A DNA stretch of 64,000 nt from Gracilaria domingensis. Its lineage: Eukaryota > Rhodophyta > Florideophyceae > Gracilariales > Gracilariaceae. The position numbers and the translations under genes are program-made. Positions within the stretch are counted from its first letter, which is position 1. Each line of letters starts with the position of its first letter. The DNA lies in contig VCMS01000212.1 in assembly GCA_022539475.1 (NCBI GenBank), positions 1 to 64,000 on the forward strand, written 5' to 3'. This document shows positions 4,227 through 34,560 of the stretch, one piece after another. Below the pieces are notes generated by a model. The model saw only the letters and a program-made list of their open reading frames with translations, did no database searches and had not been told where the DNA came from.

Positions 4227-4295
4227 AGATAGTAGCATAAATTTATTGTTTATTACATTGTTACCTTTACGTTTTATCACGACTATATTCTCCGT

Positions 4296-8690: not shown

Positions 8691-8726
8691 TTGATGCGGA
8701 CGTAGCTCACGAGTTGCAGGTGCAGG

Positions 8727-15826: not shown

Positions 15827-18800
15827 GTGTGAAAGCCGCGCTGGAAGACGACAATAGGCGGTCCATTCGGAGAAGCAAGCGTCTCAAGCTTTCCGCGCCC
15901 GCGCCTGCATCTACCGAAACAGTCACTGCCCCTTGTCGCCTTCTTGAGCCTCCGGTGTCCGAGGAAACCGTTGACCCCACTCCGTGCGCCCGTGCCATTC
16001 CGGACACTTCGCATTGTGTTTCTCTTTCCCCAAGTCCGGCGGCATTAGAGCGAGAACACGGAAGCAGTTCACGCTCAGTGCCTTCTGAGGAGGCCCTCGG
16101 TGATATGCATATGGATTATGTCACGGTTTGTCAGGCTTCAGTAGCTTCCAACCTCGGTCATCGTGAAGCAGACGAACTAATTGGGCTACTTTGGGACCTG
16201 CGATTCTCGCAAAAGTGATTCAACGAGACCATAACAAGTTTCAAGCGCTGTACAGAACTGAAGAACGCCATTTTCGAACGATACGCCTCAAAAGACGGTT
16301 TCAGTCGAAGAACCGTCTCGCCAGAAGGATGCAAGTTCAGCGCCACCCTCTACACGAGAGACCCCGTTAAGACACTTGTGAAACACCTCCAGTTGGCAAA
16401 CAACGAAAACACATTCTTCCACCCTATACCTCAGACCCACTCCACGAAAATATCTCACCCCATGTCCGGCTCTCTCGCAAGAGACGCCACCTCAAAACTT
16501 AAGGAAATGTTCATGGGCTCGTTGGATAGTAGAATAGTGTGGTACTCCCAGTAAATAAGTTACAGTGAATCTTTCGTAGGTCCTCTGCAGGTATACACCG
16601 ATAAGTCTTCAACAACTCTAAAGCAAACATCGGTTACCGCCTATCCTCTTCACCTCATATTTCTCAACTTCTCCGACGAGCTACGCCGTAAGTGCATCCG
16701 TAATGACCTCACAGTAGCGGCATACTTCTCTACCACACTGATTGAGGTTTCCACATCTGAAGCAGACGCAATGCCATTCGTTTTTAGCAAGTCTCTACGC
16801 GAGTCCAGGATGCAGATCCTTCAAGAATCTCTTCGTCAAGTTCTGGAGCCCATTCTGAATCTCACGCAGAAAGGTTTTCGGTTCATCGGCGAAGACAAAC
16901 TAAGTCGAGTGTGCCATCCTCTGCTTGCAAGTTATTGTGCGAATATTCCTGAGGCTAAAGACATTCTGTATATTCTTCATGGGACCAAAACGGAAAGCCC
17001 GTGTCATAGATGCAAAGCCCCTTGCTCATCTCTATGCAGTCATGTTCCCACCACATTCCACGAACGTTCTCAAAAGCACACAAAAAGCATCCGAAAGACA
17101 TACACAGCTATCTTACAACATGCACAAAAAGACGAGGAGGAAAGACGTCCACGTCTTGCGAGGGAGAGGAGATCTCAGGCGGATACTCTGATGCGTTCAA
17201 ATTCCATATCCCTCATTCCTTCGTTCCTCGAAACTCCCGTAAGCTTTGGAATAATCCCGGGATTTTTTCCATACAGTCTGTTCTCATTCAAACCGTTACA
17301 CAACTTGCATCTCGGCATCTCGAAGCTGATAAAGACGGCCACAATCGAGAGACTGCAGTCAAACACCCTGTGCACCACAATAAGGACATCTGCATCCCGT
17401 TAATTTCGAACGATATGCACCCAACTCCTCAACCATGCAAACGCAATTCTAGCTGCAATAGAACGCGATTCTCCTGCCAAAGGTTTACCTATCGATTTCT
17501 CCACGCAGGACAAAGGCAAATCTTTGAATGGTATCTTCACGAAACACGGTCTCCGTGGAATGCTGGAGATCAAAAACTACAAAGCACTTGACATGATCTT
17601 CCCTTTCATAGGAGCATTCCTTGAAATATGCTGTGGAGAACAGGACGGTGCCCCAATCACAATCATCTTCTCTCAGTGCTCGGACTTGCTATCGACTTTA
17701 TTCAGATACAATCGTGACAAGTAGTGGATTGAAAGCTCTCTCCTGTGTCTTAGTTCGGAGATTGAAGCCTTCAAGCGTTCCGCAACAAAGACTCTGTCCG
17801 ATTTTCATCCCTCCAGACTGGGAACTCTGAAGTTTCATCTTCTCGATCATCTCGTGGACGATATTCGCCGTCTGGGAAGTATCAAGTACTACGACGCAGG
17901 CATATACGAACATGCACACCTGCTATTTAAGAGACACTACAAAAAGACGTCCAGAAGAACAGCAACGGCTGTGGAGGAGACTATTCGCTCCATTGAGCAC
18001 GGACATGTTAGGAAGCAATGGAATGGCAATACTCCTCATCAGCGTAATCCAGGTTTACCAGGAACTTCCACACAGCTCCCTCGATTTGCAATGAGAGGGC
18101 GTTATTTCACTTTACGAGCTCTTCAACATTTTGTTTCAAGTATTTGCAGTTCAAAAACATGGACTGCTGTTAGAGAGATGTTCTCAAGTACGGACACAAG
18201 GTCGATTCTTGACCAAATTGGTGAACAGGCCCTTCCTCCTTTCCTCAGTCTCGTGAAAGAAACACTGAATGAGCACTCTATACTTCCCAGAAAAGACAAG
18301 GATAACTCTGGTGAATTCGGCCCTCGTGAAAGGCGGTTTCGTTCCGACTCTTGAACACTACGATTCGTCTTCTAAGGCACATAAGCTGGGACGACCCAAA
18401 TACCTCATCATCCAACGAGTCTTCGCTTCTCCAGCATTTGGTCCCAGTAGAAAGCCAAAGTTTTCCACCGTATTGGTAAGCGGAGAAGATTCAGAGACTT
18501 GGGTTGCCCAGGTAGTCGCTCTGATTCGAATGTCTCTCCTTGATTCTGCACTTACCGCACCAGAGGGGGCATTCGTCCGGTATTTCGAGGTTTTACCCCC
18601 CGCAACAAACATCGACCACATATTGAAATGCATATATTTACGGTGGGCTACAAACGACGAAAAGAACTACACTCTTCCGTTCCCTCGTCATTCCAAAGCG
18701 GAGACTATCTTAGAGTTAACTCCTTGGTACGGGATGGTTCCGGCTTCTGCACTTCTGCACTACAGGGAACTGTCCATGTTGTTCGATCAAACTACCCTGC

Positions 18801-18919
18801 TCCACCTTTTTGTCCTCCACTTCAATGGTTTCAACACCGATTCTACATCAATCGATTCTATCATGATTCAGATGAAGGACCAACTGAGCACGTTGATCTT
18901 GTACAGCCTTGAACATTAA
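15730..18919 (+). pseudogene. Plavaka/CACTA-like DNA transposase, broken
   Basis: Fragments in several plus-strand frames line up as one transposase. The first (15730-16218) has a zinc-finger-like start, CPFVTRRGVLSLQQHV followed by C, typical of Plavaka-type proteins. The next (16771-17403) carries ASYCANIPEAKDILYILHG and the paired-cysteine SPCHRCKAPC, then PLHNLHLGISKLIK, matching the core of CACTA/Plavaka transposases. Later frames (17854-18354, 18269-18919) give the C-terminal region. At least five frame changes are needed, so it is inactive. No CACTA terminus was identified. Its end overlaps the end of the minus-strand gene at 18861 by about 60 bases. Confidence 0.62.
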
Positions 18920-20411
18920 GGGCTCCATCCTCTACATGTTCACCTTGTGGTGCCTTTTCTTGTGATCCTGTGCTACTTCCGAAATCGTTCATGTCCATTT
19001 CCTTGAACTCTATATCCCCTTCCTCGCGTTCACCAACTAAACAATCGTTAATAGAACCCAATCTTCGGCTCACACTGTCAATAAAAAATTGTTCTTTCAC
19101 AGTGAGGTAAAGTCTTCCGTTCGACGGCATTCGATATCCAAATGTAGCCTCTCTCATGTTATTACCAAGAACCTTAGTCCAATCTTCCGTTGTCGTTCCA
19201 AAACTATGAAACTCGCTGGAATTGGTCCTCAAGACACGTTGCCTAACATCCCCCAGAACATTCTTTAAACACAGAGGTAGCAGTTGGGCAAACTTCTTTG
19301 TAAACAGTTTCTGTCTCTGGCCACCCCTTGACACATCTGTACTTAGAAGGCTCACAACCGTCAACACCCAAGCGTCCAAACGTGCGAGCAACAGTATTGT
19401 GCCATCTAAAAAGGTGCCCGTATCCTTGTCTTCCACATCATACCCAATAAAGTCCTTCAGTACTTCTACCCCGACACGGTTTCGGAAGAACAAGTCTTGA
19501 TCTTCCGTCGGCATATTCTCGACATTGTCCGCATTGGAGTACTTTAGACGAACAAATGTGGCTTTTATCCACCATGAAGTGTTCGGTACACCATTTTCGT
19601 CAAGACGCAGTATGTTCTCCTGCGCTTCCTTCAACTGCATTGTGAGTTTGTCAGCATTCTCTTCTACCAGCTTTGTTCTTCTCCAAATCAGATCGTACCC
19701 CAGGAGCAGAAATAGTTTATCCCTCGTATTTCTATTCCGAACGCCCACGACGTCAATCTTGGTCTGCCGAATTCTCTGCCTAAGGCACATATCTGTACAA
19801 AGTTCCAGTATACACCTGTCGGTAAGAGATGCTTTTCTAATACCTTCCCAGCTCAACTCCTTGAACTCGCTTTCAACCATTTTCTTCAGCAAAGCATCTG
19901 TCCCCCCCTCTACCGACGGTGTGAACATGGTAAAACTGCCCAAGAGCTCCACGGGATTTTTAGGAAACATGTATGAACCACCTTCCTCCGGCTCAATAAG
20001 CCCTTCCCCACTCTCAGTTGCGTCTTCCACCTTCTCGGCACGGTTAACCCAATTTCGGGTGAGCGACTCACCTTCGAGCCATAGCTCACTTGTTTCTCTC
20101 CTTGTCCACGTCAGCATGTTGTGATAAACTACTCGAGGAACCCCTCGAAACTCGTCGCGCACCTCAATTTTATGCTTCTTTCGACCTGTCTGTCCAGGTT
20201 CACCAGCACGTGTACTCCTATCTCCCCCCTGTTTCAGTGCACCCCTTAGCCCTTCAATGACTAGATCTTTCTCCTCAAGCCTCTGTTTCAAAGCCGTACT
20301 CTGCTCTTGGGCGACCTTCACTAGAATACCCCGAACCATCAAGTCCTCTTGTAGCGTCTTAACCGTTTCTTTCAAGCAATTCAGTTCATTTAAAAGATCA
20401 CGTCTGTTCAT
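18861..20411 (-). CDS. Long unrecognised coiled-coil protein, distal gene of the leftward arm
   Basis: From the ATG at 20411 the frame gives about 516 residues. The N-terminal 80 residues are coiled-coil-like (LLNELNCLKETVKTLQEDL and KQRLEEKDLVIEGLRG). The rest is a mixed, folded-looking region including LFLLLGYDLIWRRTKLVEEN, and a Gly/Glu-rich tail. I recognise no family. The upstream ORF at 20451-21305 is in the same frame and is separated by a single TAA. A GTAAAT...ACAG interval of 51 bases spans that stop and would join the two in frame if it were an intron. It is the most distal gene of the leftward arm and may be structural or DNA-binding. Confidence 0.6.
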   Translation of the reverse strand: MNRRDLLNELNCLKETVKTLQEDLMVRGILVKVAQEQSTALKQRLEEKDLVIEGLRGALKQGGDRSTRAGEPGQTGRKKHKIEVRDEFRGVPRVVYHNMLTWTRRETSELWLEGESLTRNWVNRAEKVEDATESGEGLIEPEEGGSYMFPKNPVELLGSFTMFTPSVEGGTDALLKKMVESEFKELSWEGIRKASLTDRCILELCTDMCLRQRIRQTKIDVVGVRNRNTRDKLFLLLGYDLIWRRTKLVEENADKLTMQLKEAQENILRLDENGVPNTSWWIKATFVRLKYSNADNVENMPTEDQDLFFRNRVGVEVLKDFIGYDVEDKDTGTFLDGTILLLARLDAWVLTVVSLLSTDVSRGGQRQKLFTKKFAQLLPLCLKNVLGDVRQRVLRTNSSEFHSFGTTTEDWTKVLGNNMREATFGYRMPSNGRLYLTVKEQFFIDSVSRRLGSINDCLVGEREEGDIEFKEMDMNDFGSSTGSQEKAPQGEHVEDGALNVQGCTRSTCSVGPSSES

Positions 20412-20450
20412 AGAGGTTGAATTCACACCAGTGTGGATATTCTCCGGTAT

Positions 20451-21305
20451 TTACCTAGCCTCTTCGGCGATAGGCCCCCGTAATGCCGCAGGATTCGGTG
20501 TTATTTTGTTATCGGAACTATCCTCATGTGCCATACCCTTAGACACGAGAGGCTGCAGGCGTTCCGTGTCCACCCTTGGAACGGCTCCCAGTTGCAACTC
20601 CCGTGTCTTTCTTCCTCCATGGCATCGTATATCAGATGAATTGGGCCTCGCACGAGCAGCAACAGCCCCCGTTCTGGAAAGAGGGGAAGGCCGAGGAGTA
20701 ACTCGCCTATCAGTCGTCTCTCGATTTCTTATTGTCTTTCTTCCTTGTCCGGACCCATTGCGAGGCATAATACGATTCATAGCGGTCCCAGTTCTGGAAG
20801 ACAGGGAGGGACGTGACGATCTTAATATATTACGGTTGTCACGACTTCTCGTTATTTTCCCTTGTTGTCCAGATCCACTGGGCAGCGTAACCCGCGCCTC
20901 AGTAGCCCCGGTCTTCGATATCGGCGGGGGACGTGAAGGTTTTGGTGTCATACGAACCTCTTCAGTTTCAGTTGTCATGCCCTCCTGTCCAGACCCGCTG
21001 GGCCGAATTACCTCCTCTTTTTGGGGAGCAGACACAGATGTACGATTTGCATTATCGGCAGTTGACGGCACGACATCGTTCGCTGATCCCCAAATTCCTG
21101 AAGCAATCCCAGAATACCCTCCGCTGCGAGATGGGCGAGAGCGTACTGTAAAAGGACGCCCACTGACTCTCTCCTTCGTCATAGACGACTTCCGTTTAGG
21201 ACTTGCGTTGCTTGTAACCTGATTTGTATCATCCGATGCTCTTCTCTTCTTCTGTCCACTTTGGTTCCGCTGCGTACTATTTCGCTTTCTCGTCGTTATA
21301 CCCAT
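20451..21305 (-). CDS. Ser/Arg/Gly-rich internally repetitive basic protein
   Basis: The ATG at 21305 opens 284 residues rich in Ser, Arg, Thr, Pro and Gly. It begins with a basic nuclear-localisation-like stretch (TTRKRNST, KKRRASDDT). Four or so diverged repeats of about 40 residues follow, each with a GSGQ core and a following SRTG or SKTG block. No known domain is visible. It resembles in style the Ser/Thr/Lys-rich repeat protein at 26335-26793 on the opposite arm. It is in frame with the long downstream protein, with one TAA between, so the two could be one protein if that stop is spliced out or read through. Confidence 0.6.
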   Translation of the reverse strand: MGITTRKRNSTQRNQSGQKKRRASDDTNQVTSNASPKRKSSMTKERVSGRPFTVRSRPSRSGGYSGIASGIWGSANDVVPSTADNANRTSVSAPQKEEVIRPSGSGQEGMTTETEEVRMTPKPSRPPPISKTGATEARVTLPSGSGQQGKITRSRDNRNILRSSRPSLSSRTGTAMNRIMPRNGSGQGRKTIRNRETTDRRVTPRPSPLSRTGAVAARARPNSSDIRCHGGRKTRELQLGAVPRVDTERLQPLVSKGMAHEDSSDNKITPNPAALRGPIAEEAR

Positions 21306-21722
21306 GTTGTGGAGATAAACGGGGTAATGAACGAAATAGTTGGAGGCGGGGGGGGGGGGTGGAGTGCATGGTTCAGATATTCCGGGAGACTTCGCAGTTC
21401 CTGATTTTCAGGAATTTGAGGTGCCCAATGGGTCGCAAATATCGTCGTTACAAATATATGAAGAGCTCCAGTGTACATATACAACGCGTATTGCAGGCAG
21501 CTGCAACATTCACAAGCATATTTACTTTCTATTCCGTACTGCACTCATCTATTGCTCCAATGTCAGAGCCCAGTCCCAGGCGTACTGCTCTCCGTAGTCG
21601 AAATAAAACCCTTCGCACCTTTCAATATCTCTTACTGCTCTACAACAAAGTAGAGCATAGTTAGAAAGGTCGGACGTAAACTGTATCACGGCCTTTGCTT
21701 CCATTATCTGCACATTGGCACT
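21306..21722. other. Spacer within the leftward arm
   Basis: No recognised gene. It includes a run of about eleven G at 21348-21358. It separates the repeat protein from the SET-like gene and may hold its own promoter or processing signals. Confidence 0.5.
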
Positions 21723-22148
21723 TCAAGTCCTGTTCGACCGAGGCTGCGATAAATCGGGATCCCCGGTATGATATCTGGCGTCGTTAATGTAGCCCCCGAT
21801 ACAAAAAGGCGCCGGGACAATGTAGACTTCGCTCTCCTTTCTATCCTGAGCCTGTCCTGGTCTGTTCCTCAGGTCGAGAAACTCCGGACCAGTCACAGTG
21901 ACCATCATGGAAAACAACTTGTACCGCACAGGAGTTGCTCCGAGACAGTCACTTCCATACGTTAGGTGTCTTTCCTTCCGGTTCGTCAGATCCGTGTATA
22001 CCAAAGTTCCATAAAAATGACATATAGTTTCCCCAGCCAATATCTTATGTTCCCTGAACACCCCCATACCAGCACGGAGATGTCGAATCTTAGAAGATGC
22101 TACATGTAAGCGATAGCGATTGGCTTCAACAGTCAACATCATATGCAT
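21723..22148 (-). CDS. SET-domain-like protein
   Basis: The ATG at 22148 opens 141 residues that look like a short SET domain, the fold of protein lysine methyltransferases. The N-terminal SET motif is represented by LRAGMGVFREHKILAGETI followed by FYGTLV, matching the usual G-x-G-v-f and G-E-x-I pattern. The late motif is represented by GGYINDARYHTGDPD, in the place of the family's N-H-S-x-x-P-N-type core. It lacks recognisable pre-SET and post-SET cysteines. The frame continues in phase from the methyltransferase gene upstream, but several stops lie between. Enzymatic activity is uncertain, and the assignment is by motif only. Confidence 0.5.
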   Translation of the reverse strand: MHMMLTVEANRYRLHVASSKIRHLRAGMGVFREHKILAGETICHFYGTLVYTDLTNRKERHLTYGSDCLGATPVRYKLFSMMVTVTGPEFLDLRNRPGQAQDRKESEVYIVPAPFCIGGYINDARYHTGDPDLSQPRSNRT

Positions 22149-22273
22149 ATCTATTAGATTCAGAGTTCCTCGATGCTTCTAGTCCCAAAGCTATACAGTA
22201 TGCTGTCCACACTTGTCGATAAACTCCAAGTCCTTCCAGTATCCTCCTAGGAACTGAGTAATATGTGCAGGCA

Positions 22274-23299
22274 TCACTTGGTACTGGGGGTATCCAAATG
22301 GAGCCTCCCATTCAAGCCAACCTCGATCCCGATGTGGAACCCGTCATATGTTTTTGAAGCAGCATCCACCACCTCCTGTTCAACCACGATGTCATTCTTC
22401 CCCCCGCGAAGAACTTCGGTCATAAGAATCGTTATATGGTGCTTCGCATGGCTGAAACATGGTCTAATTTTCTCGCGCCTCAAGAACTTCCTATTCTTTG
22501 TAAGCGATAGGCACGCCATACCGGTAGAAAAACTTCCCGCGAACATGTCCATGACAAGATCACCCGGTCTTGTGAAGCGACAAATCAACTCTTTCATCAA
22601 ATCCCTGGACTTCTGCTCCGGTCTTATGTACTGTGCACTTGGTACTGAACTACCTGGCTCATTTAACATCCATGTCAACCACTCCTCCGCTCTCGGTTTC
22701 GGCAACCGGTCAATTACATTCCTGTTTGCTGGGAAAGTAGAAGGAATGGAATTTTTCTCCTCAAATGGAGTAAGACTGGCTTCCTCCGATGGTCGCAATC
22801 CACGCTTCACTCCATGAACGGCGTACTCCGTTACGGGCTGTATCCCAAACTTTGGTGGATTCCCACCGACATTACTTCGATCCCGGATGAACACCAGTGG
22901 ATTCCCATCCACTTTAAACGAAGGCATGAGTTCTGGCTTACCTTCGCTTCCAGCTTCATCTTTCGTACTCGCCGTCTCCGAGAGTATCCTGTGCCAAACA
23001 TTAAACTGTGCCATGGCACAGAATATAATGAAGTGCCCACCTGACTGAAGCGCGGAACTTATTAAGTCAGCCGTACTGATCATGTCATCCTCACTGAAGA
23101 CATCGTGAGCACTATTCCGTTTGCTCCTCTTCCTTAGAGTGTTAAAGGGAGGGTCTGTTAGGACAAGCTGTGCCTCACCGCATAAAATCTCACTCTGATT
23201 CACTAACGTTTCATGTGTGTGCCTTAGGTCCTTCATGTCAGAGTTGTACGCTACAAAGTGTGACTTTCTCATCCCCTTCCACACCTTGTCCATATTCAT
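22274..23299 (-). CDS. DNA N6-adenine/N4-cytosine methyltransferase (beta class)
   Basis: The ATG at 23299 opens 341 residues. Motif IV, the catalytic D-P-P-F, is at residues 49-52 (LVLTDPPFN). The AdoMet-binding motif I, FAGSFSTG, lies much later at residues 253-260, preceded by RPGDLVMD. That permuted order defines the beta class of amino-methyltransferases that modify exocyclic amines of adenine or cytosine. It is unlike the MT-A70 group of most eukaryotes, whose motif is D-P-P-W. The glycine of the usual FxGxG is changed (FAGSF), which may affect cofactor binding. It sits in the leftward arm between small ORFs and the SET-like gene. Confidence 0.75.
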   Translation of the reverse strand: MNMDKVWKGMRKSHFVAYNSDMKDLRHTHETLVNQSEILCGEAQLVLTDPPFNTLRKRSKRNSAHDVFSEDDMISTADLISSALQSGGHFIIFCAMAQFNVWHRILSETASTKDEAGSEGKPELMPSFKVDGNPLVFIRDRSNVGGNPPKFGIQPVTEYAVHGVKRGLRPSEEASLTPFEEKNSIPSTFPANRNVIDRLPKPRAEEWLTWMLNEPGSSVPSAQYIRPEQKSRDLMKELICRFTRPGDLVMDMFAGSFSTGMACLSLTKNRKFLRREKIRPCFSHAKHHITILMTEVLRGGKNDIVVEQEVVDAASKTYDGFHIGIEVGLNGRLHLDTPSTK

Positions 23300-23572
23300 T
23301 CAAAAGAGACTGGATATACCCTTCAACGGGCGGCTCAATACTAGTCTTTTCGATGTAGTACCCGGCAACCCAAGACTCATGCTCCGCACGATTCACCGGC
23401 TTCTCGAAGTCGTCGCTATCGGAGCTCACGAGGTCCATATATTCTCGACGAGATGGGGTGGGGCAGACTTGGTCGAAGAAGGTTCGGCATTACCTGAAGT
23501 TTTAGGAGTTTTCGTCAGTTCAATATCCGGTTTCGCGTGAATGCCCACATTGAACCCTGCCGCATGACTCAT
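23238..23572 (-). CDS. Small overlapping ORFs upstream of the methyltransferase
   Basis: A 48-residue frame opens at the ATG at 23572 and ends at 23426. A 66-residue frame opens at the ATG at 23438, overlaps it by 13 bases, and ends at 23238 inside the start of the methyltransferase gene. The second is acidic (MDLVSSDSDDFEKPVN). Either they are two tiny proteins or one protein joined by a frameshift or a short intron. No function is recognised. Confidence 0.35.
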
Positions 23573-23587
23573 ATCCGATATCGGTTT

Positions 23588-24685
23588 CTATAGCAACTCC
23601 GAAAAGTTCTGAAATCGTGCAGGCAACTCACCGGAGTCAGAATTAGATACAGTATCCATCCGTATCTCATAAAACTCTATCCAGTTCCGCATCTGATCAA
23701 CCCGTAATCTATAGAGGCTATCGTGGGTGCATATGGTTTCGAGGTCTGTCAAAACTTCCTTAGCCAGTATTCGGAGGTTTGTATCGCATTCATCGCCCAA
23801 GGTCTCCACCAATTTAGTAGTACTGCTCTGTGCCACATCTTGTGTGTGGAATCGAGTACTCTGGCTTGGCCGGGCATAAGCGAACTGCCGTGTCTCTAGG
23901 GCTGTATACTTCAACGTGTGCATATTCATGTAAATGTATGGTTTCACCATGTGCTGAACGTTTTTGTATCCAAGATGAGCCGCAAAACAATTCTATGCCC
24001 ATACGACCTCACTGATAGCAAATCCCAGTTGATTGCAGTTGTCTTTGGAAAACGACGTAAAAGTGGGTATGTACACAGATGGTGCATGGTTCAGTTTTCG
24101 TTTCTTTTTCGGTTGTTTCTTCTTCATCATTCTGATCTTGTGGTTCTCTCCCATTATGTGGCCAAGGTATGATAAGTATATAACGACCCCAAATGGGTCC
24201 ACAGCTGTTGGTGGGATAAACACTGTCGTCTTCAGAACCTGCTTTTTCCTGGTCATGAAATATCCAACCAGGAATCGCACCGGTAGGTATATACCCTTAT
24301 CCATGGAGAGAAGGAAATAATCGCGGGGTCTTTGGTCATCATCTCCGTCCTTCTTGTCAAGAAGCTTCGTCACAAGGTAACGTTGCTCTACAGGTTTGTT
24401 ATTCACCACACTGTTTCGCAGCTGCTGCCGTGTCAAGTTCTGCAGGTTCTTGGAATTAGTGGCCTCCTCAAACATCTGCCTTGCCTCCGGAATATCCTTA
24501 TAGTTCTCGGCGCAGAACTCTATAAGCCCTCTAAACCCCACGTCCCCTGGCCGATCAGGGCCTCCATCGCTGTTTGCCAAAGCATCGCGAAGAACCAAGA
24601 AAAGTGTCACATATGTATGGAACGCCGGAGGCGGAGCACTCATGTCGATAGGATTTATCTCCTCTCCATCATCGATGGAATCCAT
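23588..24685 (-). CDS. Unrecognised protein, first gene of the leftward arm, with one in-frame TAG
   Basis: From the ATG at 24685 a frame of 230 codons ends at a TAG (23993-23995). The same frame then stays open for another 135 codons to 23588, including a second ATG at 23950. A 51-base GTATGG...TTCAG interval spans the TAG and would leave the frame intact if spliced. The first part has a Lys-rich patch (MMKKKQPKKKRKLNH) suited to nuclear import, and the second a helical RLRVDQMRNWIEFYE stretch. I recognise no family. It lies immediately downstream of the shared promoter-like module at 24701-24750. Confidence 0.5.
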
Positions 24686-24700
24686 CGCTTCAGCGCAAAG

Positions 24701-24750
24701 AACGGAGGCGAGACTTTAAATGGCGACTTAGGCTGGGCACCCCCGCTTTT
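24701..24750 (-). promoter_or_regulatory. Shared promoter-like module, left copy
   Basis: On the minus strand this reads AAAGCGGGGGTGCCCAGC, then AGTCGCCATTTAAAG, then CTCGCC. It matches the plus-strand copy at 25892-25941 in about 45 of 50 positions. The TTTAAA core lies 30 bases upstream of the first ATG of the leftward arm. Confidence 0.7.
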
Positions 24751-24980
24751 GGCAGCTCCTCCTAGCGCACTGCCAGTCTCGCCCGTGTCTGTGTCCGCTC
24801 CCTTCTGGGGTCGGTGTCCGTGCCGCTTTGAGCGGGTGCGATAGCGTCGCGTGTCGGCCACGTCGCGATTCGGAGCTATTGCAAAGGTCGCGTATTGTGC
24901 TAATAGTCGCGGACTAAGTGGATGTGAAGTGCTAGTTTTCTCTAGTTTGATATATGTGCACGGCGTGTGCAGCGAAATCA

Positions 24981-25052
24981 CTGCCGGAAGTGCCGAGGGG
25001 AGTCTTTTGGGAGGTCTCCGGAGGGTGCCAGAATGTGGCCAGAACGTGCCCA
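24981..25052 (+). repeat. Control-region element, copy a
   Basis: This begins ctgccggaagtgccg and ends with gccagaatgtggcc and acgtgccc. It is repeated in the same orientation at 25815-25882 and inverted at 25231-25302. Confidence 0.75.
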
Positions 25053-25065
25053 CGGGCGGGGGGTC

Positions 25066-25097
25066 GGTCGTGTTAGGGTAGGTACCCTAACACGACC
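25066..25097. repeat. Perfect palindrome with a TTAGGG-containing arm
   Basis: The 15-base arm ggtcgtgttagggta at 25066-25080 pairs fully with 25083-25097 across two bases. The same arm recurs in the next hairpin. Confidence 0.85.
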
Positions 25098-25172
25098 GGA
25101 CCCCCCCCGCGGGCATAGAATCGCGCAATTTTCAAAAAATCGCCCAAAACGTGCCCGCGGGAGGAAGGTTCC

Positions 25173-25204
25173 GGTCGTGTTAGGGTACCTCCCCTAGCAC
25201 GACC
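25173..25204. repeat. Second hairpin with the same arm sequence
   Basis: ggtcgtgttaggg pairs with ccctagcacgacc with one mismatch. A long C run follows it at 25207-25224. Confidence 0.8.
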
Positions 25205-25230
25205 GACCCCCCCCCCCCCCCCCCGCCCGC

Positions 25231-25302
25231 GGGCACGTTTTGGGCACATTCTGGCGCCTTTTCGGAACCTCCCAAAACACACCCCCCGGCACTTCCTGTA
25301 CC
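25231..25302 (-). repeat. Control-region element, copy b (inverted)
   Basis: Reverse complement of the 24981-25052 and 25815-25882 elements, with a few substitutions. Confidence 0.7.
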
Positions 25303-25814
25303 CACTGCGTCACCTCAGTGGACCATCCCGTCTTCTCCACCCTCCAGAAACTCCCTAATTTTCACGCGCATCACACCTACCCTAGGGAAGAGGATGGTGT
25401 CGAGAGTCAATGATGTGGGGGACTCTATGCATTCTGCGCTATGTTCCATGACGAGGGCTGATATACTGGATGCACCGCCGATGTCCCGGAGGCCGCCCCT
25501 GGCGCAGCAATACTTAAGAGCGCCATCGATAGCAGTCTTTTGTAGTCTAGTGGTAAACTATGAAGCAACTTATCACTTTCAGTAAACTGATCTTTACGGC
25601 AGTCATCCACTGTACATGACGCAATTCCATCCCGGAGCCGTAAGTTCGTTACGCGCATGCAGCCCATCGGAGGGCCGCCGCTGTGCTCGCCAGCGACCGC
25701 GCGCAACAACAGTCTCACTCCGAACCCACGACACCGACCGCTGCTGACACCAGGGAGTTAGGGAGCATTGCAAGGATGGAGAAGACGCGTTGGTGCATTA
25801 AGGTGAGGCGGTGG

Positions 25815-25882
25815 GTGCCGGAAGTGCCGGGAGGAGTGTTTTGGAAGGTCTCCGGATGGTGCCAGAATGTGCCCAAAACGTG
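25815..25882 (+). repeat. Control-region element, copy c
   Basis: Same orientation as copy a. It ends immediately before the right copy of the promoter-like module, so in the rightward arm the two elements are directly adjacent. Confidence 0.75.
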
Positions 25883-25891
25883 CCCGCTGAC

Positions 25892-25941
25892 GAAAGCGGG
25901 GGTGCCCAGCGTGAGTCGCCATTTAAAGGCTCGCCTTCGTT
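25892..25941 (+). promoter_or_regulatory. Shared promoter-like module, right copy
   Basis: Faces rightward. Its TTTAAA core is at 25922-25927, about 77 bases upstream of the ATG at 26004. It matches the left copy on the opposite strand in about 45 of 50 positions. Confidence 0.7.
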
Positions 25942-26003
25942 CTTGTATCGTCCAGAGCGAGCGTATTGTTGATATACACCTTTCACTGCAAAAGCTGTTC
26001 AAC

Positions 26004-26330
26004 ATGAACCAGACTTGTGTTCGAAAGCGTACGCAAAGCGTGACTCCTCGCACTCGGTGGAGCACTCGATCATTGCAAGGTGGAATGCCGGTTTCTCTGC
26101 AGATAGATATTGAGAATGAAGGAAAGGTGATATTCGGGGCGTTGTTGCATGGAATTGGAAGTTTTCTACGTCGCGAGTTGAACGGGAAGCAATTGGACCC
26201 AGGTCTTGTGGTGTATCATTTCATAATATTCTCATCAGTCGAAACGGTCAGACGTTCTACCCTTACCGGGCGGAGGGCCTGGATCTTTCAAAAACATCCA
26301 GGATCTCCGGACGGCCGCTCCTTGGGATGA
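26004..26330 (+). CDS. Small unrecognised ORF, first of the rightward arm
   Basis: The ATG at 26004 opens about 108 residues starting with a basic MNQTCVRKRTQSVTPRTR stretch. A more ordered section follows (VIFGALLHGIGSFLRRELNG). The last third may be out of frame. From about 26230 another frame reads GQTFYPYRAEGLDLSKTSRI, which looks more protein-like, so a frameshift or short intron near 26220 is possible. No family is recognised. Confidence 0.4.
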   Translation: MNQTCVRKRTQSVTPRTRWSTRSLQGGMPVSLQIDIENEGKVIFGALLHGIGSFLRRELNGKQLDPGLVVYHFIIFSSVETVRRSTLTGRRAWIFQKHPGSPDGRSLG

Positions 26331-26334
26331 GAAA

Positions 26335-26793
26335 ATGATGGAACCGGTGGCAGCCAGCATTCCGGCGTCCAAGCGACGAACGCTGAGCGCTATGAGTGAG
26401 GTGATGACGCCCACAAGCCGCATGGAGCCAATTAGAAGTTCATCAACACCGAGAGGTAGCATATCAGTAGCACCTCCGCGGGCCAGTGCGTCCTCTGTTA
26501 CGAAGCGGAAAATGGAGACGAGATCATCCCCAGCTACGAAACGGACAGGCCAAACAAAGTCCGCATCCGCTACGAAGCCCACTGCGTCGAGAAGGGCATC
26601 TCCTGCGATGAATCAGACCGTGGACACGAGGGAAACTTCTCCGTCAAAACAGACGGTTCAGCACGGGACTGCTGTGCGAGAAGAGGAAGATGAGATCATA
26701 AAAGGTCCCCTTCTAGACGCGGATGCGCAATCCACACAACGAGCTGGTCCGTACCCAAACTGCACCACAAAGTGCGGAGCAGCAGGACGATGA
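26335..26793 (+). CDS. Ser/Thr/Lys-rich repeat protein
   Basis: About 152 residues from the ATG at 26335. The middle consists of diverged 12-13-residue repeats with the pattern S-P-A-T-K-R-T (SSPATKRTGQTKSASATKP and so on), giving a strongly basic, histone-H1-tail-like composition. The C-terminal part overlaps the start of the ParB-like frame by 71 bases. The two may be exons of one protein. No enzymatic domain is present; a DNA- or chromatin-binding tail is the simplest reading. Confidence 0.45.
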   Translation: MMEPVAASIPASKRRTLSAMSEVMTPTSRMEPIRSSSTPRGSISVAPPRASASSVTKRKMETRSSPATKRTGQTKSASATKPTASRRASPAMNQTVDTRETSPSKQTVQHGTAVREEEDEIIKGPLLDADAQSTQRAGPYPNCTTKCGAAGR

Positions 26794-27517
26794 CATTGTG
26801 CTTCTGTCCACAAGAATGGCACGTTCAAGTGTTTCTGGCGAGCGGTCTGGAACACAAGGGACACCTACTCGGAGCAAGATGTACAGACGAATTCGTCAGA
26901 AGGTCCCAAAGGTGAACCTCAATCACTACTGGATGGTTGCTGTTACTGTTGACATCACTCTCGTGGACACTCCGCCCAATTTACTCCGTGGAGTAGGTAA
27001 ACGCCACGTTGAAGCCCTTGTGAAGAGTATGGAGGAGCGGGGGATATTGCAGTCGATGGGTTCCCCAGTGGTGGCCTTACAAGATGCTACTACGGGAGAG
27101 AGGGATACTGACAAGGGACGTCTAACAAAGAAGTGCTTCATTGTAGATGGTGTGCATCGTCTGAAAGCTATACAATATTTGGCAGCGACTGGTGCACCGA
27201 AGTGGAAGCGATTAGCCAAGTTTTGGCGTTGCAATCTGCTGATACGAAGAGATGGGAGGCTCATTGGGATGAAGGAATCGTTATGTGTTGCTTCGTACCT
27301 CAAAGCGTCGACGAGTATCATGCGAAGGATGATGTTTGCAGACAAGATACCCTCTATAGTTAGTATGGTCGCCATTCTATTTGAAGATGTTGAGGGGGTG
27401 ACGCCGACAGACGTGGATCCTGCAGAAGTGACGGAAGTGTTGAAGGAGAGCCAACTGATTGGGATTGTGACAGTATCTGAGATATGCCAATGTCGCCCTG
27501 CGACTCATGTCTCGTGA
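26723..27517 (+). CDS. ParB/Srx-like nuclease-fold protein
   Basis: The ATG at 26723 opens 264 residues. A Gln-rich start is followed by a ParB N-terminal-type domain. GVGKRHVEALVKSMEERGI (residues 90-108) matches the first ParB motif, and FIVDGVHRLKAIQYL (139-153) matches the family's v-D-G-x-H-R-x-x-A core. This fold covers chromosome-partition CTPases, nucleases and sulfiredoxins. It is common beside methyltransferases in prokaryotic and phage DNA-modification loci and rare in eukaryotes. The end of the frame overlaps the next ORF by 11 bases. A 67-base GTATCT...TTCGAG interval would join them in frame if it were an intron. Confidence 0.62.
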   Translation: MRNPHNELVRTQTAPQSAEQQDDDIVLLSTRMARSSVSGERSGTQGTPTRSKMYRRIRQKVPKVNLNHYWMVAVTVDITLVDTPPNLLRGVGKRHVEALVKSMEERGILQSMGSPVVALQDATTGERDTDKGRLTKKCFIVDGVHRLKAIQYLAATGAPKWKRLAKFWRCNLLIRRDGRLIGMKESLCVASYLKASTSIMRRMMFADKIPSIVSMVAILFEDVEGVTPTDVDPAEVTEVLKESQLIGIVTVSEICQCRPATHVS

Positions 27518-28571
27518 GGGAATGCTGACCCATTTCGAGGATATATGTGAGACTGTGAGTGACATATGTATCACACATCTGTCCCATACTCCGCTATATG
27601 TCTTGGATGCCGAGGAGTTTTCCTTCATTCTTGATTGTCTTCATATGTTTCTATTGAAGGGCAAGTCGACGAAGACAAAGCAATGGAAAAGCTTTGAGGA
27701 GGTTCAAGGTTTCTTTTATGATAGAGCAGTGTCTCTGTTCCGCGCGGCTCGAGCAGTGAGGAATGAACTGAACGAGGAAGAGTCGATGGAAGTGTTCCTG
27801 AAACGCGAAGTCAGTCTTTCTGCTCTATCGAATGAAGATGACGTTGAAGACCCAGACATCAACGCAGCTGTGTATCAGTTCTTTTTGGGACAAGTTGTGA
27901 ACTTCAACACATTGCCGCGTGTTCGGAGCAGGACGAACTCAATTAGAACTGCCACGACTTCCGTTCAGAATCGATTGCAGACGATGCTCAAGGTAGTTTC
28001 GCCCCCCGCACCAGTGAAGCAGTCCGTGACGAAGAGGAGGACCTCCGCTGCTGCTGCTGCAACATCTGTCAGTGAAGAAGGGGAGCCGCGAAGAAGTGCA
28101 CGAGAACGGGCGCAGGTGAGTTATAGAGAAATTGAGCACGGCCGAAATCGAGGCGCCGTAGAAGTTCTGGATAGCTCTGATGAAGAACAGCGGGCTCCGC
28201 CGAGGAAGAAACAGAGAAAGACTTTCACACAACAGATGAGATCTACTCTGAACAGCATGACACCGGATGACCTGATGTCTCAAATAAATGAACATGTGCT
28301 GAGAGGAAGGTCGATGAAGGTTCAGTTCGTGGCATTGGAAGAGAGAGGGAATGCAGAGACCGCAAGCAGTTCTGCTTTTGTGGGTGACGAAGAGCTTCTT
28401 GCTGTGACAGTTCCACGGGTTGTCACCGTCGAGAAAGATGCTGCGCCAGACGATCAGCAAGAGAAAGGTGGGGGGCCAATTGATGACGAGCTACCTACAG
28501 CTCTTCCGGAATCTGAGGAGCACGGACTTATTCGAGGAGACCCATATGATGGCCCACCGAACCCATCATGA
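27507..28571 (+). CDS. Charged linker-type protein following ParB
   Basis: The ATG at 27507 opens 354 residues. The first third is helical (HFEDICETVSDICITHLS, FILDCLHMFLLKGKSTK) and may be the C-terminal half of the ParB-like protein. The middle is low complexity, with acidic SSDEE and basic PPRKKQRKTF nuclear-localisation-like patches. The TGA at 28569-28571 is followed by the same frame, open to 29834. No domain is recognised. It may be the linker of a larger ParB-dioxygenase protein. Confidence 0.5.
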   Translation: MSREGMLTHFEDICETVSDICITHLSHTPLYVLDAEEFSFILDCLHMFLLKGKSTKTKQWKSFEEVQGFFYDRAVSLFRAARAVRNELNEEESMEVFLKREVSLSALSNEDDVEDPDINAAVYQFFLGQVVNFNTLPRVRSRTNSIRTATTSVQNRLQTMLKVVSPPAPVKQSVTKRRTSAAAAATSVSEEGEPRRSARERAQVSYREIEHGRNRGAVEVLDSSDEEQRAPPRKKQRKTFTQQMRSTLNSMTPDDLMSQINEHVLRGRSMKVQFVALEERGNAETASSSAFVGDEELLAVTVPRVVTVEKDAAPDDQQEKGGGPIDDELPTALPESEEHGLIRGDPYDGPPNPS

Positions 28572-28601
28572 TGCGGGTATGTCAGGCTGAGACCGCAGGA
28601 A

Positions 28602-29834
28602 TTGCAAGGGAAGAACGTAGTTGAGCACAAGGACCCTTGGCCCAGAGTCATTCACTTGCCGAAGTCACATAGGTCGGAGCTGCTAAGTGTCTCGGATCTC
28701 AGAGATGTACACCATCTTGTGTTTTGGCAAGCTGCAAGGGCTGAACATCACCTACGGGCGGAGATATTTGGTATGCAGTATCCTCGTACTCGGCCGACAG
28801 GTATGGATGATGAAGAGGTGCTGTGGATTGCTGCGAAGGAGCATGAAGAAGTTGGGCAAATGTTCTTGGCCCGAATGCAAGCTGAGCTTAGGCAGAATGG
28901 ATATTGCGTGCTTGATGGCTTTGCGACGGATAATGGTGTCCCTAAATGGGAGGAGTTAGAAGAAGTTCGGGAGCTCGGAGATGTGTCGGGGAAGTTGGTG
29001 GACTTCTTCGGGAATGAGTATGGAGCGATGCCGGATATACGGAAAGAAGAGGAACAGAAGTCGTTTGTTCAAATCATCAACGATGATGAAGGATGGAAGG
29101 ACGGGAGCGATGGACCATTTGAGGGGAGAGTGATGTCAACACGTTGGGGTACGGTGGAGAAGCCGGAGGATAATGAGGAGCTCAGGTGGGTTGTAAGGTC
29201 GCGTGCTTTACTTGATGTTCGAATGGGTACAATTGCTGCGGCTTTAAGACTATGGGTCAATGAAAGGGAAGCTGTGAAGATGTACACTCCGAAAACTGGT
29301 GGTCGATTTTTGGGGACCACGAGAAAGTGCAAGCGCCAGACGCTGCACACCGACTTCAGTGGTCTAGTTACGAAGGAAACAATGAATACTGGTATCCCCG
29401 GATTCTTTGTAATGGCTTCTGCGAAAGAGGGCTTTCCTCTCTGGGTGAGCACTGGAAGCCGTCAACTGGTGGGGATGAACAACCAACAGTTGCGAGTGAT
29501 GTCGGAGGTGTATCCAGCGAAGAAGATAATCATCCCATCGTACTCTGTATTCGTGGGCCGTGGTGATGTGACACATGCTGGAGCAAATGGGAAGGACAAG
29601 TTGGATAGGCCTGAGTCTATGGATTTGCTTGTTAGATACCACATGTACATGGTACCAGAGGGCTACGCACTACCTGATGCTGTTCATCGGGTACGGGATT
29701 TCCGACCCACGTTGTCAATGGTGACGAGGAGGAGGAGGCCGAGGATGAACTGTTGTCCGATAAGGAGGGTGGGGCGGTTGACATGGAAGAGACCAAGTGG
29801 TCGTGGAGATTGGTGTGGAAGCGGACGAAGGTAG
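28602..29834 (+). CDS. 2-oxoglutarate/Fe(II) dioxygenase-like protein
   Basis: The frame is open from just after the TGA at 28571. The first in-frame ATG is at 28773. The double-stranded beta-helix signature is present: metal ligands in TLHTDF (HxD, near 29346-29354), a distal histidine in GRGDVTHAGA (near 29574), and a 2-oxoglutarate-binding arginine candidate in LLVRYHMY (near 29634). NGYCVLDGF upstream resembles the N-terminal strand of phytanoyl-type oxygenases. Such enzymes hydroxylate or demethylate small molecules, proteins or nucleic acids. Beside a DNA methyltransferase, a nucleobase role is plausible but inferred. Near 29710 a different frame gives an acidic tail, so the true C-terminus may differ. 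Confidence 0.6.
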   Translation: MQGKNVVEHKDPWPRVIHLPKSHRSELLSVSDLRDVHHLVFWQAARAEHHLRAEIFGMQYPRTRPTGMDDEEVLWIAAKEHEEVGQMFLARMQAELRQNGYCVLDGFATDNGVPKWEELEEVRELGDVSGKLVDFFGNEYGAMPDIRKEEEQKSFVQIINDDEGWKDGSDGPFEGRVMSTRWGTVEKPEDNEELRWVVRSRALLDVRMGTIAAALRLWVNEREAVKMYTPKTGGRFLGTTRKCKRQTLHTDFSGLVTKETMNTGIPGFFVMASAKEGFPLWVSTGSRQLVGMNNQQLRVMSEVYPAKKIIIPSYSVFVGRGDVTHAGANGKDKLDRPESMDLLVRYHMYMVPEGYALPDAVHRVRDFRPTLSMVTRRRRPRMNCCPIRRVGRLTWKRPSGRGDWCGSGRR

Positions 29835-30014
29835 AACCGAAGTGCTCGAGAGCAGTATTGATGACGATTTACCAACAATGAGGCTGCGAGCGCCTCGAAG
29901 TGGATGAGAATGAGATGATTAGTAAATTATGAGTGTCTTGCGAGTATTAAGAGTAGTATACTACTACATATGAACATAGAAAAGGTTGCGGCAGGCTGGT
30001 AATGTTAACAAATG
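29835..30014. other. Junction between the cassette and duplication copy 2
   Basis: Short AT-leaning spacer without a gene. Homology to the start of copy 1 begins at about 30015. I find no terminal repeat matching the left side of the cassette. Confidence 0.5.
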
Positions 30015-30264
30015 TCATACCTCTTGGTCCAGTTGGCCGGCTAATTGCAACAGCAACATGCCCTCGGTATCGTTAACATCATTGGATGGCACCATTCGAT
30101 TCGCAATTGAACATGAAAAAACGCCCTACCACTTCTGAAACTGCACTGAAGGTGGCTTTTGAAGAGAAGTATTTGAAACTGAGAAGTCTATGCAGTTGCC
30201 TGTCTATGCGGTACTTGTGCCAGTCATGGTAAGTGTATCAGGAAAAATGGCAGGAAAGAAAAGA

Positions 30265-30391
30265 GAGACTTGCGGAAATTTCACCCAATACCTTGTCTAA
30301 GTTCATATTTGCAATGGTTACGGTATATTAAGTTCCCGTTGGGACGTTGAGAAGAGAAGGAGATCAATTCCACAGAGAAAGTTGTGAAGTG
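30265..30391 (+). pseudogene. HAD paralogue fragment, copy 2, cut by the gap
   Basis: Matches the start of the degenerate HAD paralogue at 266-390, with additional small indels (for example ttcccgttgggacg in place of ttcgttgatggaacg). It runs into the unsequenced gap, so the rest is not visible. Confidence 0.7.
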
Positions 30392-34170: not shown

Positions 34171-34186
34171 AAAGGATGGAGTTGGA

Positions 34187-34492: not shown

Positions 34493-34560
34493 AGATAGTA
34501 GCATAAAATTATTGTTTATTACATTGTTACCTTTACGTGTTATCACAACTAAATTCTCCG

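What the first reader, a model, noticed from the sequence alone, without database searches (positions are those of the whole stretch)
18861..29834. Divergent cassette pairing a DNA amino-methyltransferase with a dioxygenase, ParB-like and SET-like proteins
Seen: two compact gene arms diverge from one control region and encode a beta-class D-P-P-F methyltransferase, a SET-like protein, a ParB-fold protein, an HxD...H dioxygenase-like protein and several basic or coiled-coil unknowns. Known: writers and oxidisers of modified bases are often encoded together in phages and some eukaryotic transposons. Inference: a mobile or viral-derived system that marks, reads and possibly removes a base or chromatin modification. 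I know of no described element with this gene set.
Basis: partly seen in the sequence, partly recalled or inferred. Interest (0 to 1): 0.88.

Follow-up and report, generated by a model that had tools for sequence, protein, structure and literature searches.

The report
Giant algal transposon carrying epigenetic enzymes
The gene cluster is part of a roughly 22-kilobase jumping gene, present in hundreds of full or shortened copies in what is most likely a red alga, that carries a DNA-methylating enzyme and probable DNA-binding and oxidising proteins around a palindromic control region, perhaps to recognise and mark itself.

Summary
The cassette is real and mobile, but is the middle of a larger element. 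Window 13878-36523 is one decayed copy of a ~22-kb Plavaka-type DNA transposon in a ~78-Mb genome, most likely a red alga's. Termini CGTCTGT...ACAGACG count 565 left and 575 right. Two-base target duplications flank 12 of 12 tested copies of 10-16 kb but only 1 of 8 of 19-23 kb. Diverged lineages (25-50% protein identity) keep the divergent layout. In all four lineages read, the spacer holds long palindromes of lineage-specific sequence; the main one has 1358 genomic sites and lies in 10 of 10 shortened copies checked. No cytosine-5 methyltransferase was detected, making the 5mC-eraser role proposed in fungi less likely. Giant EnSpm/Plavaka elements and ParB-methyltransferase cargo are already reported in algae, so this is a new variant of a known kind; I found neither the two fusions nor the palindromic centre in the literature searched. 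Dioxygenase fold, ParB identity and all functions remain inferred.

The parts
13878..36523 (+). Whole transposon copy (22.6 kb) from left terminus CGTCTGT to right terminus ACAGACG; contains a stretch of N at about 30.39-31.30 kb; no target-site duplication seen
   Evidence: Homology to another copy (c71) starts and stops at the same terminal bases in independent copies; termini counted genome-wide; flanks
13878..13894 (+). Left terminus (short inverted repeat CGTCTGT...)
36507..36523 (+). Right terminus (...ACAGACG)
15730..18909 (+). Plavaka transposase gene, broken in this copy (frames 2/3/2; Pfam-matching ORF 16771-17403)
   Evidence: PF18759 E=5.1e-9 for the piece, 2.7e-19 for the 1059-aa homologue L056; tblastn map
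18861..21305 (-). Protein of unknown function, coiled-coil-like by eye (ORFs of 521 and 284 aa; one 659-aa frame in c71)
   Evidence: diverged homologue in the C6 lineage
21579..22343 (-). SET part of the methyltransferase-SET protein; in another frame than the methyltransferase here
   Evidence: tblastn with L040; PF00856 in L040 and L001
22274..23299 (-). Beta-class DNA methyltransferase ORF (DPPF motif; adenine type by nearest solved structures)
23300..24685 (-). N-terminal region of the same protein, no recognised domain (ORFs 23588-23950 and 23993-24685)
24698..25944 (.). Divergent control region with mirrored outer arms (24698-24756 / 25886-25944) and palindromes between them
   Evidence: fold z-score -21.0 for 24980-25300
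25065..25098 (.). Palindrome GTCGTGTTAGGGTA-NN-TACCCTAACACGAC (second, imperfect copy at 25172-25215)
   Evidence: 1358 sites genome-wide, reversed-pattern control 0
26004..26815 (+). N-terminal extension of the ParB-dioxygenase protein, spread over several frames
   Evidence: tblastn with L044
26816..27469 (+). ParB-like domain (VDGxHR core)
   Evidence: PHROG ParB families, best E=0.007; alignment A5
27471..29904 (+). Linker plus dioxygenase-like domain; HxD 29346-29354, H 29574, R 29634
31306..32244 (-). HAD-type hydrolase ORF with a 237-bp tandem duplication in this copy
   Evidence: PF08282 in homologous ORFs
32872..33774 (-). 300-aa protein resembling ketopantoate reductase (weak)
   Evidence: ApbA_C E=0.062, below cut-off, in the C6-lineage homologue only; 50% identity across lineages
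35126..36055 (+). Coiled-coil-like ORF near the right end (by eye; no family above cut-off)
1..6263 (+). Right part of a second copy of the element, ending at its right terminus
   Evidence: 98% identity to c71 17446-23706
6264..9308 (-). Left-end fragment of a further copy in inverted orientation, with 375-bp tandem repeats

Best explanation
The region is a copy of a giant cut-and-paste DNA transposon of the Plavaka (EnSpm-related) group, most likely in a red alga (identity shown by sequence). A DDE transposase moves it and leaves 2-bp target-site duplications (duplications shown for 10-16 kb copies; transposition itself inferred). Its cargo is a self-recognition and anti-silencing kit (inferred). 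One protein couples an N6-adenine-type DNA methyltransferase to a SET histone-methyltransferase-like domain, so it would mark the element's DNA and its nucleosomes. [quoted passage not shown] it would bind the palindromes in the shared control region, as ParB binds parS, and remove or oxidise a methyl mark there. The pair would distinguish element from host DNA and keep the control region open. Shortened copies that keep termini and palindromes would be moved in trans. Identity as a Plavaka transposon: about 0.95. The functional scheme: about 0.45.
For: Plavaka Pfam hit above cut-off; D, D, C2C, H3H and E motifs in order in the 1059-aa copy. Termini counted, reversed control 0; 2-bp TSDs in 12 of 12 pairs of 10-16 kb. 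Methyltransferase and SET both above cut-off in single frames of two diverged lineages. Nearest solved structures are adenine methyltransferases (DpnA, CcrM, MboIIA). Convergent transposase and methyltransferase 5.5-8.8 kb apart, mostly 6.0-6.5, in 18 of 77 and 13 of 46 transposase hits of the two families as I split them; same-strand control 1 and 0 (both lists capped). Methyltransferase dN/dS 0.12-0.34 among the unshifted copies L022, L024, L038-L040 and c71, and 0 for the three near-identical pairs. Palindromes in the same spacer in 4 of 4 lineages read; in the three folded no shuffle folds as well. Main palindrome at 1358 sites; the 50 listed lie within 13 kb of a listed element feature, and 16 of 16 clusters on seven contigs do so where 21% of those contigs is covered; present in 10 of 10 paired copies of 6-14 kb. 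Family-2 palindrome core at 96 sites; 16 pairs among the 50 listed are 494-498 bp apart.
Against: The dioxygenase has no Pfam or NCBIfam match and only chance-level PDB matches; the single-sequence fold failed (pLDDT 29). ParB is below thresholds and its VDGxHR core reads INGAYR in the C489 lineage. The ParB-dioxygenase fusion as one open frame was seen only in the main lineage; in C6 and C489 the two parts are adjacent in the same order but in broken frames, and in C12 they were not fetched. Only 1 of 8 pairs of 19-23 kb has a TSD, so long copies may be chimeric, misassembled or mispaired. At zero mismatches 2 of 3 paired copies of 20-23 kb show no listed palindrome, and 16 of 50 listed family-2 palindromes had no family-2 hit nearby. 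Cargo could be hitchhiking: dioxygenase dN/dS is 0.36-0.52 between subfamilies and up to 0.77 within. Methyltransferase pairs with L035/L036 reach 0.68, and pairs with the frame-shifted group reach 1.2. No expression, binding or methylation data.
Confidence: 0.5

Rival explanations
1. The dioxygenase is a TET/JBP-like eraser of 5-methylcytosine that relieves host silencing, as proposed for fungal transposons including Plavaka, and the methyltransferase is incidental.
For: Some fungal Plavaka families carry TET/JBP dioxygenases (PMC12730594: abstract, passages, sections 3.2.3 and 3.4). 5mC is reported in another red seaweed, Gracilariopsis chorda (passage in the review PMC8566409).
Against: No C5-DNA-methyltransferase domain was found in this genome (PF00145; control rang in 10 of 14 genomes). 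No Tet_JBP match (but no control genome rang). HxD here, rather than the HxE of the PE type that the fungal Plavaka elements carry.
Confidence: 0.15
2. The cargo is passenger sequence: a giant transposon picked up host and phage-derived genes that do nothing for transposition.
For: HAD and KPR-like genes look metabolic. A 10.3-kb copy that lacks methyltransferase, SET, the dioxygenase and most of ParB has a clean TSD. Many copies are frame-shifted or carry stops.
Against: The methyltransferase-SET fusion and the divergent layout persist in lineages at 34-46% identity in that protein. Methyltransferase dN/dS is low in the unshifted copies, and the HxD...H...R residues are conserved.
Confidence: 0.25
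3. The palindromes are a replication, hairpin or transposition cis-site unrelated to the ParB-like protein, and the enzymes only modify host chromatin.
For: Palindromes are kept in a deletion copy that lacks the ParB-dioxygenase gene and in all ten short copies checked. Their sequence differs between lineages.
Against: In the four lineages read they sit between the two divergent genes, like operators. Shortened copies could use the protein in trans.
Confidence: 0.3
4. A giant-virus or virophage-like integrated element rather than a transposon.
For: Gene-dense, long uninterrupted frames, phage-like methyltransferase.
Against: Short terminal inverted repeats, 2-bp TSDs and a Plavaka transposase; no capsid, packaging ATPase or DNA polymerase family among the 20 proteins scanned; no relative of the transposase or dioxygenase found in IMG/VR.
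Confidence: 0.03

Closest known systems
Giant Plavaka/EnSpm DNA transposons of red algae (Petroll et al. 2025, Curr Biol 35:2771; not held; seen only through sentences in PMC12477816 and in reference lists; the word Plavaka in its abstract is recalled)
   Same: Giant EnSpm-type elements with multiple accessory genes in red algae; PMC12477816 also cites it for ParB/methyltransferase-type proteins in red algal transposons
   Different: I could not read whether it describes the methyltransferase-SET and ParB-dioxygenase fusions or the palindromic centre
Sola1-1_Ec32 of the brown alga Ectocarpus (PMC12477816, passages)
   Same: 21.5-kb transposon with a ParB-like domain and an N6A/N4C DNA methyltransferase encoded opposite to the transposase; binding and modifying its own sequence is proposed there
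   Different: ParB and methyltransferase are in one 1104-aa protein and the transposase is Sola-1; here ParB is next to a dioxygenase-like domain, the methyltransferase is fused to SET, and the transposase is Plavaka
TET/JBP-carrying Plavaka (PlavakaB) of fungi (PMC12730594: abstract, passages, sections 3.2.3 and 3.4, figure legends)
   Same: Plavaka transposase plus a dioxygenase; short TSDs; escape from silencing proposed
   Different: The word ParB does not occur in its main text, and I saw no DNA methyltransferase or SET cargo on Plavaka there; termini CATCA..TGATG; the dioxygenase is the HxE type
Plavaka giant repeats of Amoebidium (PMC11244446, passages and one section)
Phage ParB-DNA methyltransferase fusions
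   Same: ParB-like domain paired with a beta-class methyltransferase; 2 of 8 IMG/VR ORFs read here have this form, judged by eye
   Different: One protein; no SET or dioxygenase in those ORFs
HarbingerS and MuDR transposons with SET genes in Phytophthora (one sentence in the introduction of PMC12730594)
   Same: Transposon-borne SET domain
   Different: No fusion to a DNA methyltransferase is mentioned in the sentence seen

Membership tests
Plavaka DNA transposon | Plavaka transposase domain | tested here: met
   PF18759 E=2.7e-19 in L056, 5.1e-9 in the window piece, at least 123 genome hits above cut-off
Plavaka DNA transposon | D, D, E with C(2)C and H(3-4)H motifs (as described in PMC12730594) | tested here: met
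   YTDKS, ADIPE, CHRC, HLLDH, YEHAH in order in L056; residues assigned by eye, not by structural alignment
Plavaka DNA transposon | 2- or 3-bp target-site duplication | tested here: met
   2 bp in 12 of 12 pairs of 10-16 kb; 1 of 8 of 19-23 kb, the window copy being one of the 7 without
Plavaka DNA transposon | Published termini TGT..ACA (PlavakaA) or CATCA..TGATG (PlavakaB) | tested here: not met
   Termini are CGTCTGT..ACAGACG; therefore not filed under A or B but as a separate lineage carrying a Plavaka transposase
Beta-class N6-adenine DNA methyltransferase | DPP[YF] motif N-terminal to the SAM-binding FxG-type motif | tested here: met
   Alignments A2 and A4, PF01555, nearest PDB chains adenine methyltransferases
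Beta-class N6-adenine DNA methyltransferase | Methylates adenine | not testable with these tools
   Needs assay or long-read calls; N4C not excluded
SET domain | Pfam SET above cut-off | tested here: met
   PF00856 6.8e-7 (L040), 7.8e-6 (L001), 3.4e-8 (L053); none in the window piece or in the cut-off L100 frame
2-oxoglutarate/Fe(II) dioxygenase | HxD...H...R triad conserved in diverged relatives | tested here: met
   Present in main and C489 lineages (A3) and in C6 (HTD; H and R); 10 of 10 main copies. C12 not fetched
2-oxoglutarate/Fe(II) dioxygenase | Double-stranded beta-helix fold | tested here: inconclusive
   No credible profile hit; AlphaFold on one sequence pLDDT 29
TET/JBP | Tet_JBP profile match | tested here: not met
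   None in the element proteins or genome (where no control genome rang, so sensitivity unknown)
ParB/Srx-like | ParB profile match and GxHR core | tested here: inconclusive
   PHROG E=0.007-0.086; no Pfam ParB match; core present in main and C6, altered in C489
parS-like site | Palindromes in cis next to the parB gene | tested here: met
   sequences unlike bacterial parS (parS recalled)
parS-like site | Bound by the element's ParB domain | not testable with these tools
   Needs a binding assay
Polinton / giant-virus element | Capsid or B-family polymerase genes | tested here: not met
   No such Pfam match among the 20 proteins scanned; not every ORF of every copy was scanned

The most novel reading that the evidence does not exclude
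A eukaryotic transposon group carries a complete writer-eraser pair for a DNA base mark: an adenine methyltransferase fused to a histone-methylating domain, and a ParB-guided dioxygenase that acts at palindromic, parS-like operators. Element DNA would carry its own epigenetic identity and promoter control in a host where no cytosine-5 methyltransferase was detected. Each lineage evolves its own palindrome and matching ParB domain, giving self/non-self specificity among lineages.
Probability: 0.25. Interest if true: 0.88.

Novelty: new variant of a known kind. Interest (0 to 1): 0.62.

Why it matters
The element may make up about a tenth of this assembly: a rough 7.5 Mb from ~570 ends and a 13.1-kb median length of 46 paired copies, assuming that every end belongs to such a copy. 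If the cargo writes and removes a base mark at its own palindromes, it would be a self-marking mobile element with a defined operator, and it would make the function of 6mA in a eukaryote testable by a clean prediction: element DNA marked, host DNA not. Lineage-specific palindromes give a direct binding test. It would also show that transposons coping with silencing need not target 5mC.

Tried and rejected
The dioxygenase core found no relative in IMG/VR, GTDB genomes or phages; the ParB-like region none in phages; the transposase none in IMG/VR. PDB searches with the dioxygenase and ParB sequences gave chance-level matches. A virus-derived origin and a plain host-gene cluster were considered and rejected (see rivals; copy number, termini, TSDs). 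A CCGCGG hexamer shared by the palindromic spacers (3-8 per spacer in six spacers, against 2, 0 and 1 in 21.3, 19.7 and 10.2 kb of other window, C71 and C6 element sequence; first-order shuffles P 0.066 for the window spacer, 0.01 or less for the other five) was noticed by eye, is post hoc, and carries no weight here. A reference phage with a TET-like protein and the red-algal paper were not held.
Full report
WHAT WAS CHECKED. PHROGs give three weak ParB families for 26723-27517 (0.007 to 0.086).

HOST. The window lies in a 77.9-Mb, 680-contig genome. Fourteen phycobilisome-linker matches, four of them on contig C680, which looks plastid-derived, point to a eukaryote with phycobilisomes (of 14 control genomes only the cyanobacterium rang). 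Most likely this is a red alga; glaucophytes, which also have phycobilisomes (recalled), are not excluded. The species was not identified.

IT IS A TRANSPOSON. Whole-genome searches returned at least 102 dioxygenase, 118 methyltransferase and 145 ParB matches (only top candidates are scored, so these are lower bounds). Comparing two other copies (c71 = L053-L055, c60 = L056-L057) with the window shows a unit repeated over ~22 kb. Homology between the window and c71 stops at the same bases at both ends: CGTCTGT on the left, ACAGACG on the right; the fetched part of c60 does not reach its ends. In the window the full copy is 13878-36523; a second copy's right part is 1-6263 and an inverted left fragment is 6264-9308. 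Terminus patterns with up to 3 mismatches count 565 left and 575 right ends; the reversed control gives 0. Of 46 paired ends (from 96 and 94 of the 100 listed ends each; two pairs reuse a right end), 30 span 9-15 kb, 12 span 18-24.3 kb and 4 fall outside these ranges; the extremes are 6.4 and 24.3 kb.

TARGET-SITE DUPLICATIONS. Two-base duplications flank 12 of 12 tested pairs of 10-16 kb. Among 19-23 kb pairs only 1 of 8 does; the seven without include the window copy and c71 (C54 was tried with two alternative right ends and neither matched). Apart from the window and c71, pairs were joined by distance and strand only. Ectopic recombination between copies, misassembly of repeats longer than the reads, or mispairing are possible causes, untested. 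This is the main blemish on the element's definition.

GENE CONTENT. From left to right in better-preserved copies: a Plavaka transposase (1015 and 1059 aa; D, D, C2C, H3H, E in order); a coiled-coil-like protein; then on the minus strand one protein with an uncharacterised N-terminus, the DNA methyltransferase and a SET domain (L040, 1036 aa, both domains above cut-off); the spacer; on the plus strand one protein with a ParB-like and a dioxygenase-like domain (L057, 1033 aa; L044 shows a further N-terminal part); two HAD-type hydrolases, a KPR-like protein and a coiled-coil-like protein. These were read from different copies; no single copy was shown to have every gene open. The 10.3-kb copy on C8 is an internal-deletion derivative that keeps a broken transposase gene, the spacer, the start of the ParB-side gene, the KPR-like gene and the right end, with a TSD.

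THE WINDOW COPY IS DECAYED. Mapped with proteins from other copies, its transposase runs through three frames, its methyltransferase-SET gene shifts frame near 22343 and carries stops upstream, and its ParB-dioxygenase gene shifts near 27470 and 29712, with further breaks upstream (ORFs). So 'separate SET, ParB and dioxygenase genes' is an artefact of decay. A near-identical copy is on C518 (three genes at 99-100%) and another on C218 (ParB and dioxygenase at 99-100%); these may be recent copies or unmerged haplotypes.

DEEP CONSERVATION. Three further lineages were read in part. C6 (L059, L001, L058): methyltransferase-SET in one frame at 45-46% identity to L040, with relatives of the ParB, dioxygenase, KPR-like and both coiled-coil-like genes. 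C489 (L002, L060): methyltransferase, SET start, ParB-like and dioxygenase-like, in broken frames. C12 (L100, L181): methyltransferase and SET start in one frame, 34% identical to L040, and the start of the ParB-side protein; its ParB and dioxygenase domains were not fetched. C489 and C12 are 55-72% identical to each other in the pieces compared, so they are sub-lineages of one branch. ParB-region identities to the main lineage are 25-40%, dioxygenase pieces 36-49%. The open ParB-dioxygenase fusion is shown for the main lineage only. The transposase hits fall into two families by matched profile range; transposase and methyltransferase converge 5.5-8.8 kb apart in 18 of 77 and 13 of 46 of them, against 1 and 0 on the same strand (both lists are capped, so a missing partner is not informative). 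Methyltransferase dN/dS is 0.12-0.34 between unshifted copies L022, L024, L038-L040 and c71 (0 for the three L038-L040 pairs); pairs with L035/L036 run up to 0.68, and pairs with the frame-shifted group up to 1.2. Dioxygenase dN/dS is 0.36-0.52 between the window/L010 group and the rest, 0.35-0.77 among the rest where dN is above 0, and the catalytic motifs are intact in 10 of 10 copies. Between-lineage conservation, not these ratios, is the stronger sign of function.

ENZYME ASSIGNMENTS. The methyltransferase profile's best solved relatives are adenine-specific (DpnA 9e-15, CcrM 3e-10, MboIIA 1.5e-6; an N4-cytosine enzyme, PvuII, at 2e-4), and DPP[YF] precedes the SAM motif. Phage relatives abound (at least 83 at E<=1e-3), and 2 of 8 ORFs read there look like ParB-methyltransferase fusions by eye, so the ParB/methyltransferase pairing itself is a known prokaryotic theme. 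The dioxygenase has the expected triad in three lineages but no credible profile match, and the only fold attempt failed; I put ~0.75 on the 2-oxoglutarate assignment and ~0.7 on ParB, both judgements.

THE CONTROL REGION. This was not in the finding. In the main lineage the spacer holds a 30-bp palindrome, often in arrays, inside longer inverted repeats, flanked by mirrored outer arms. The C6 lineage has three hairpins of 156-174 bp (fold z -22.9), C489 a 29-nt-arm hairpin with a partial second copy (z -9.0), and C12 a perfect 38-bp-arm palindrome with a 23-bp-arm second copy ~494 bp away (not folded). The window spacer folds at z -21.0. In the three folded, no shuffle folds as well. Genome-wide the main palindrome has 1358 sites (up to 2 mismatches; control 0). 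The 50 listed (all exact) lie within 13 kb of a listed element feature; as a control, such neighbourhoods cover 21% of the seven contigs of known length, and all 16 clusters there fall inside. Of 13 paired copies on the contigs covered by the listing, ten of ten of 6-14 kb contain 1-6 exact sites and one of three of 20-23 kb does; that the ten are internal deletions was read in one case (L082) and is inferred from size in the others. The family-2 core, taken from C12, has 96 sites (up to 3 mismatches; control 0). Of the 50 listed, 34 lie near a family-2 methyltransferase or transposase hit and 16 do not; 17 of 33 family-2-like methyltransferases have one 1.9-3.1 kb away on the upstream side, in two fixed positions, and 16 neighbouring pairs are 494-498 bp apart. 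Retention in short copies suggests a cis-acting role.

SILENCING CONTEXT. No C5-DNA-methyltransferase domain was found (control rang in 10 of 14 genomes; six-frame search exon by exon). A Tet_JBP search found nothing, but no control genome rang. A review reports mostly non-CG cytosine methylation in Gracilariopsis chorda and H3K27me3 on repeats in Cyanidioschyzon (PMC8566409, passages), so the lack of a recognised C5 enzyme here does not prove a lack of 5mC.

LITERATURE. Searches (listings only unless said) with Plavaka (11 papers), Plavaka with methyltransferase and with red algae, Bostrychia with giant transposon, transposon with DNA methyltransferase, SET domain and N6-methyladenine, red algae with N6-methyladenine, ParB with transposon and dioxygenase terms and giant transposon with ParB showed no description of a methyltransferase-SET or ParB-dioxygenase fusion in a transposon; this covers open-licence PMC only. 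[quoted passage not shown] 2025, which I could not read. PMC11244446 (passages and section 7) describes Plavaka giant repeats in Amoebidium. PMC12730594 (abstract, passages, sections 3.2.3 and 3.4, figure legends) covers TET-carrying transposons in fungi, Plavaka among them, and notes that the fungal enzyme CcTET also oxidises 6mA.

VERDICT. A giant Plavaka-type transposon, most likely of a red alga: secure as to transposon type. Its cargo as a self-recognition and marking kit with a palindromic operator: plausible, about 0.45. New variant of a known kind.

Noticed in passing
window 24980-25300; L054 2337-3045; L058 237-884; L060 7768-7834; L181 116-191 and 625-670: Each of the four lineages read has long palindromes of its own sequence in the divergent spacer; the main one has 1358 genomic sites.
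   Followed up: yes
window 1-9308: A second copy's right end abuts an inverted left-end fragment of another copy, suggesting nested or rearranged insertions.
   Followed up: partly
window 7030-8688: 375-bp tandem repeats (4.4 copies, 97% matches) near the left end of the inverted copy; related repeats in c71.
   Followed up: no
window 31742-32219: 237-bp tandem duplication inside the HAD hydrolase ORF.
   Followed up: no
window 4001-6000 and 34001-36000: Strong GC skew (+0.50 and +0.46) over the right-end coiled-coil-like ORF of both copies.
   Followed up: no
L005, L025-L034 and window 22274-23299: Methyltransferase ORFs share a C-terminal tail (ending TPSTK) that replaces the link to SET: a frame-shifted subfamily that appears to have amplified.
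   Followed up: partly
G000 whole genome: No C5-DNA-methyltransferase (PF00145) match, although cytosine methylation is reported in another red seaweed.
   Followed up: partly
L082 (C8:198179-208117): A 10.3-kb deletion copy with a clean TSD that lost the methyltransferase-SET and dioxygenase but kept the spacer; nine of the 46 paired copies are 10.1-10.6 kb, so it may belong to an amplified non-autonomous subfamily.
   Followed up: partly
window 55322-55373: Perfect 22-bp-stem hairpin outside the element.
   Followed up: no
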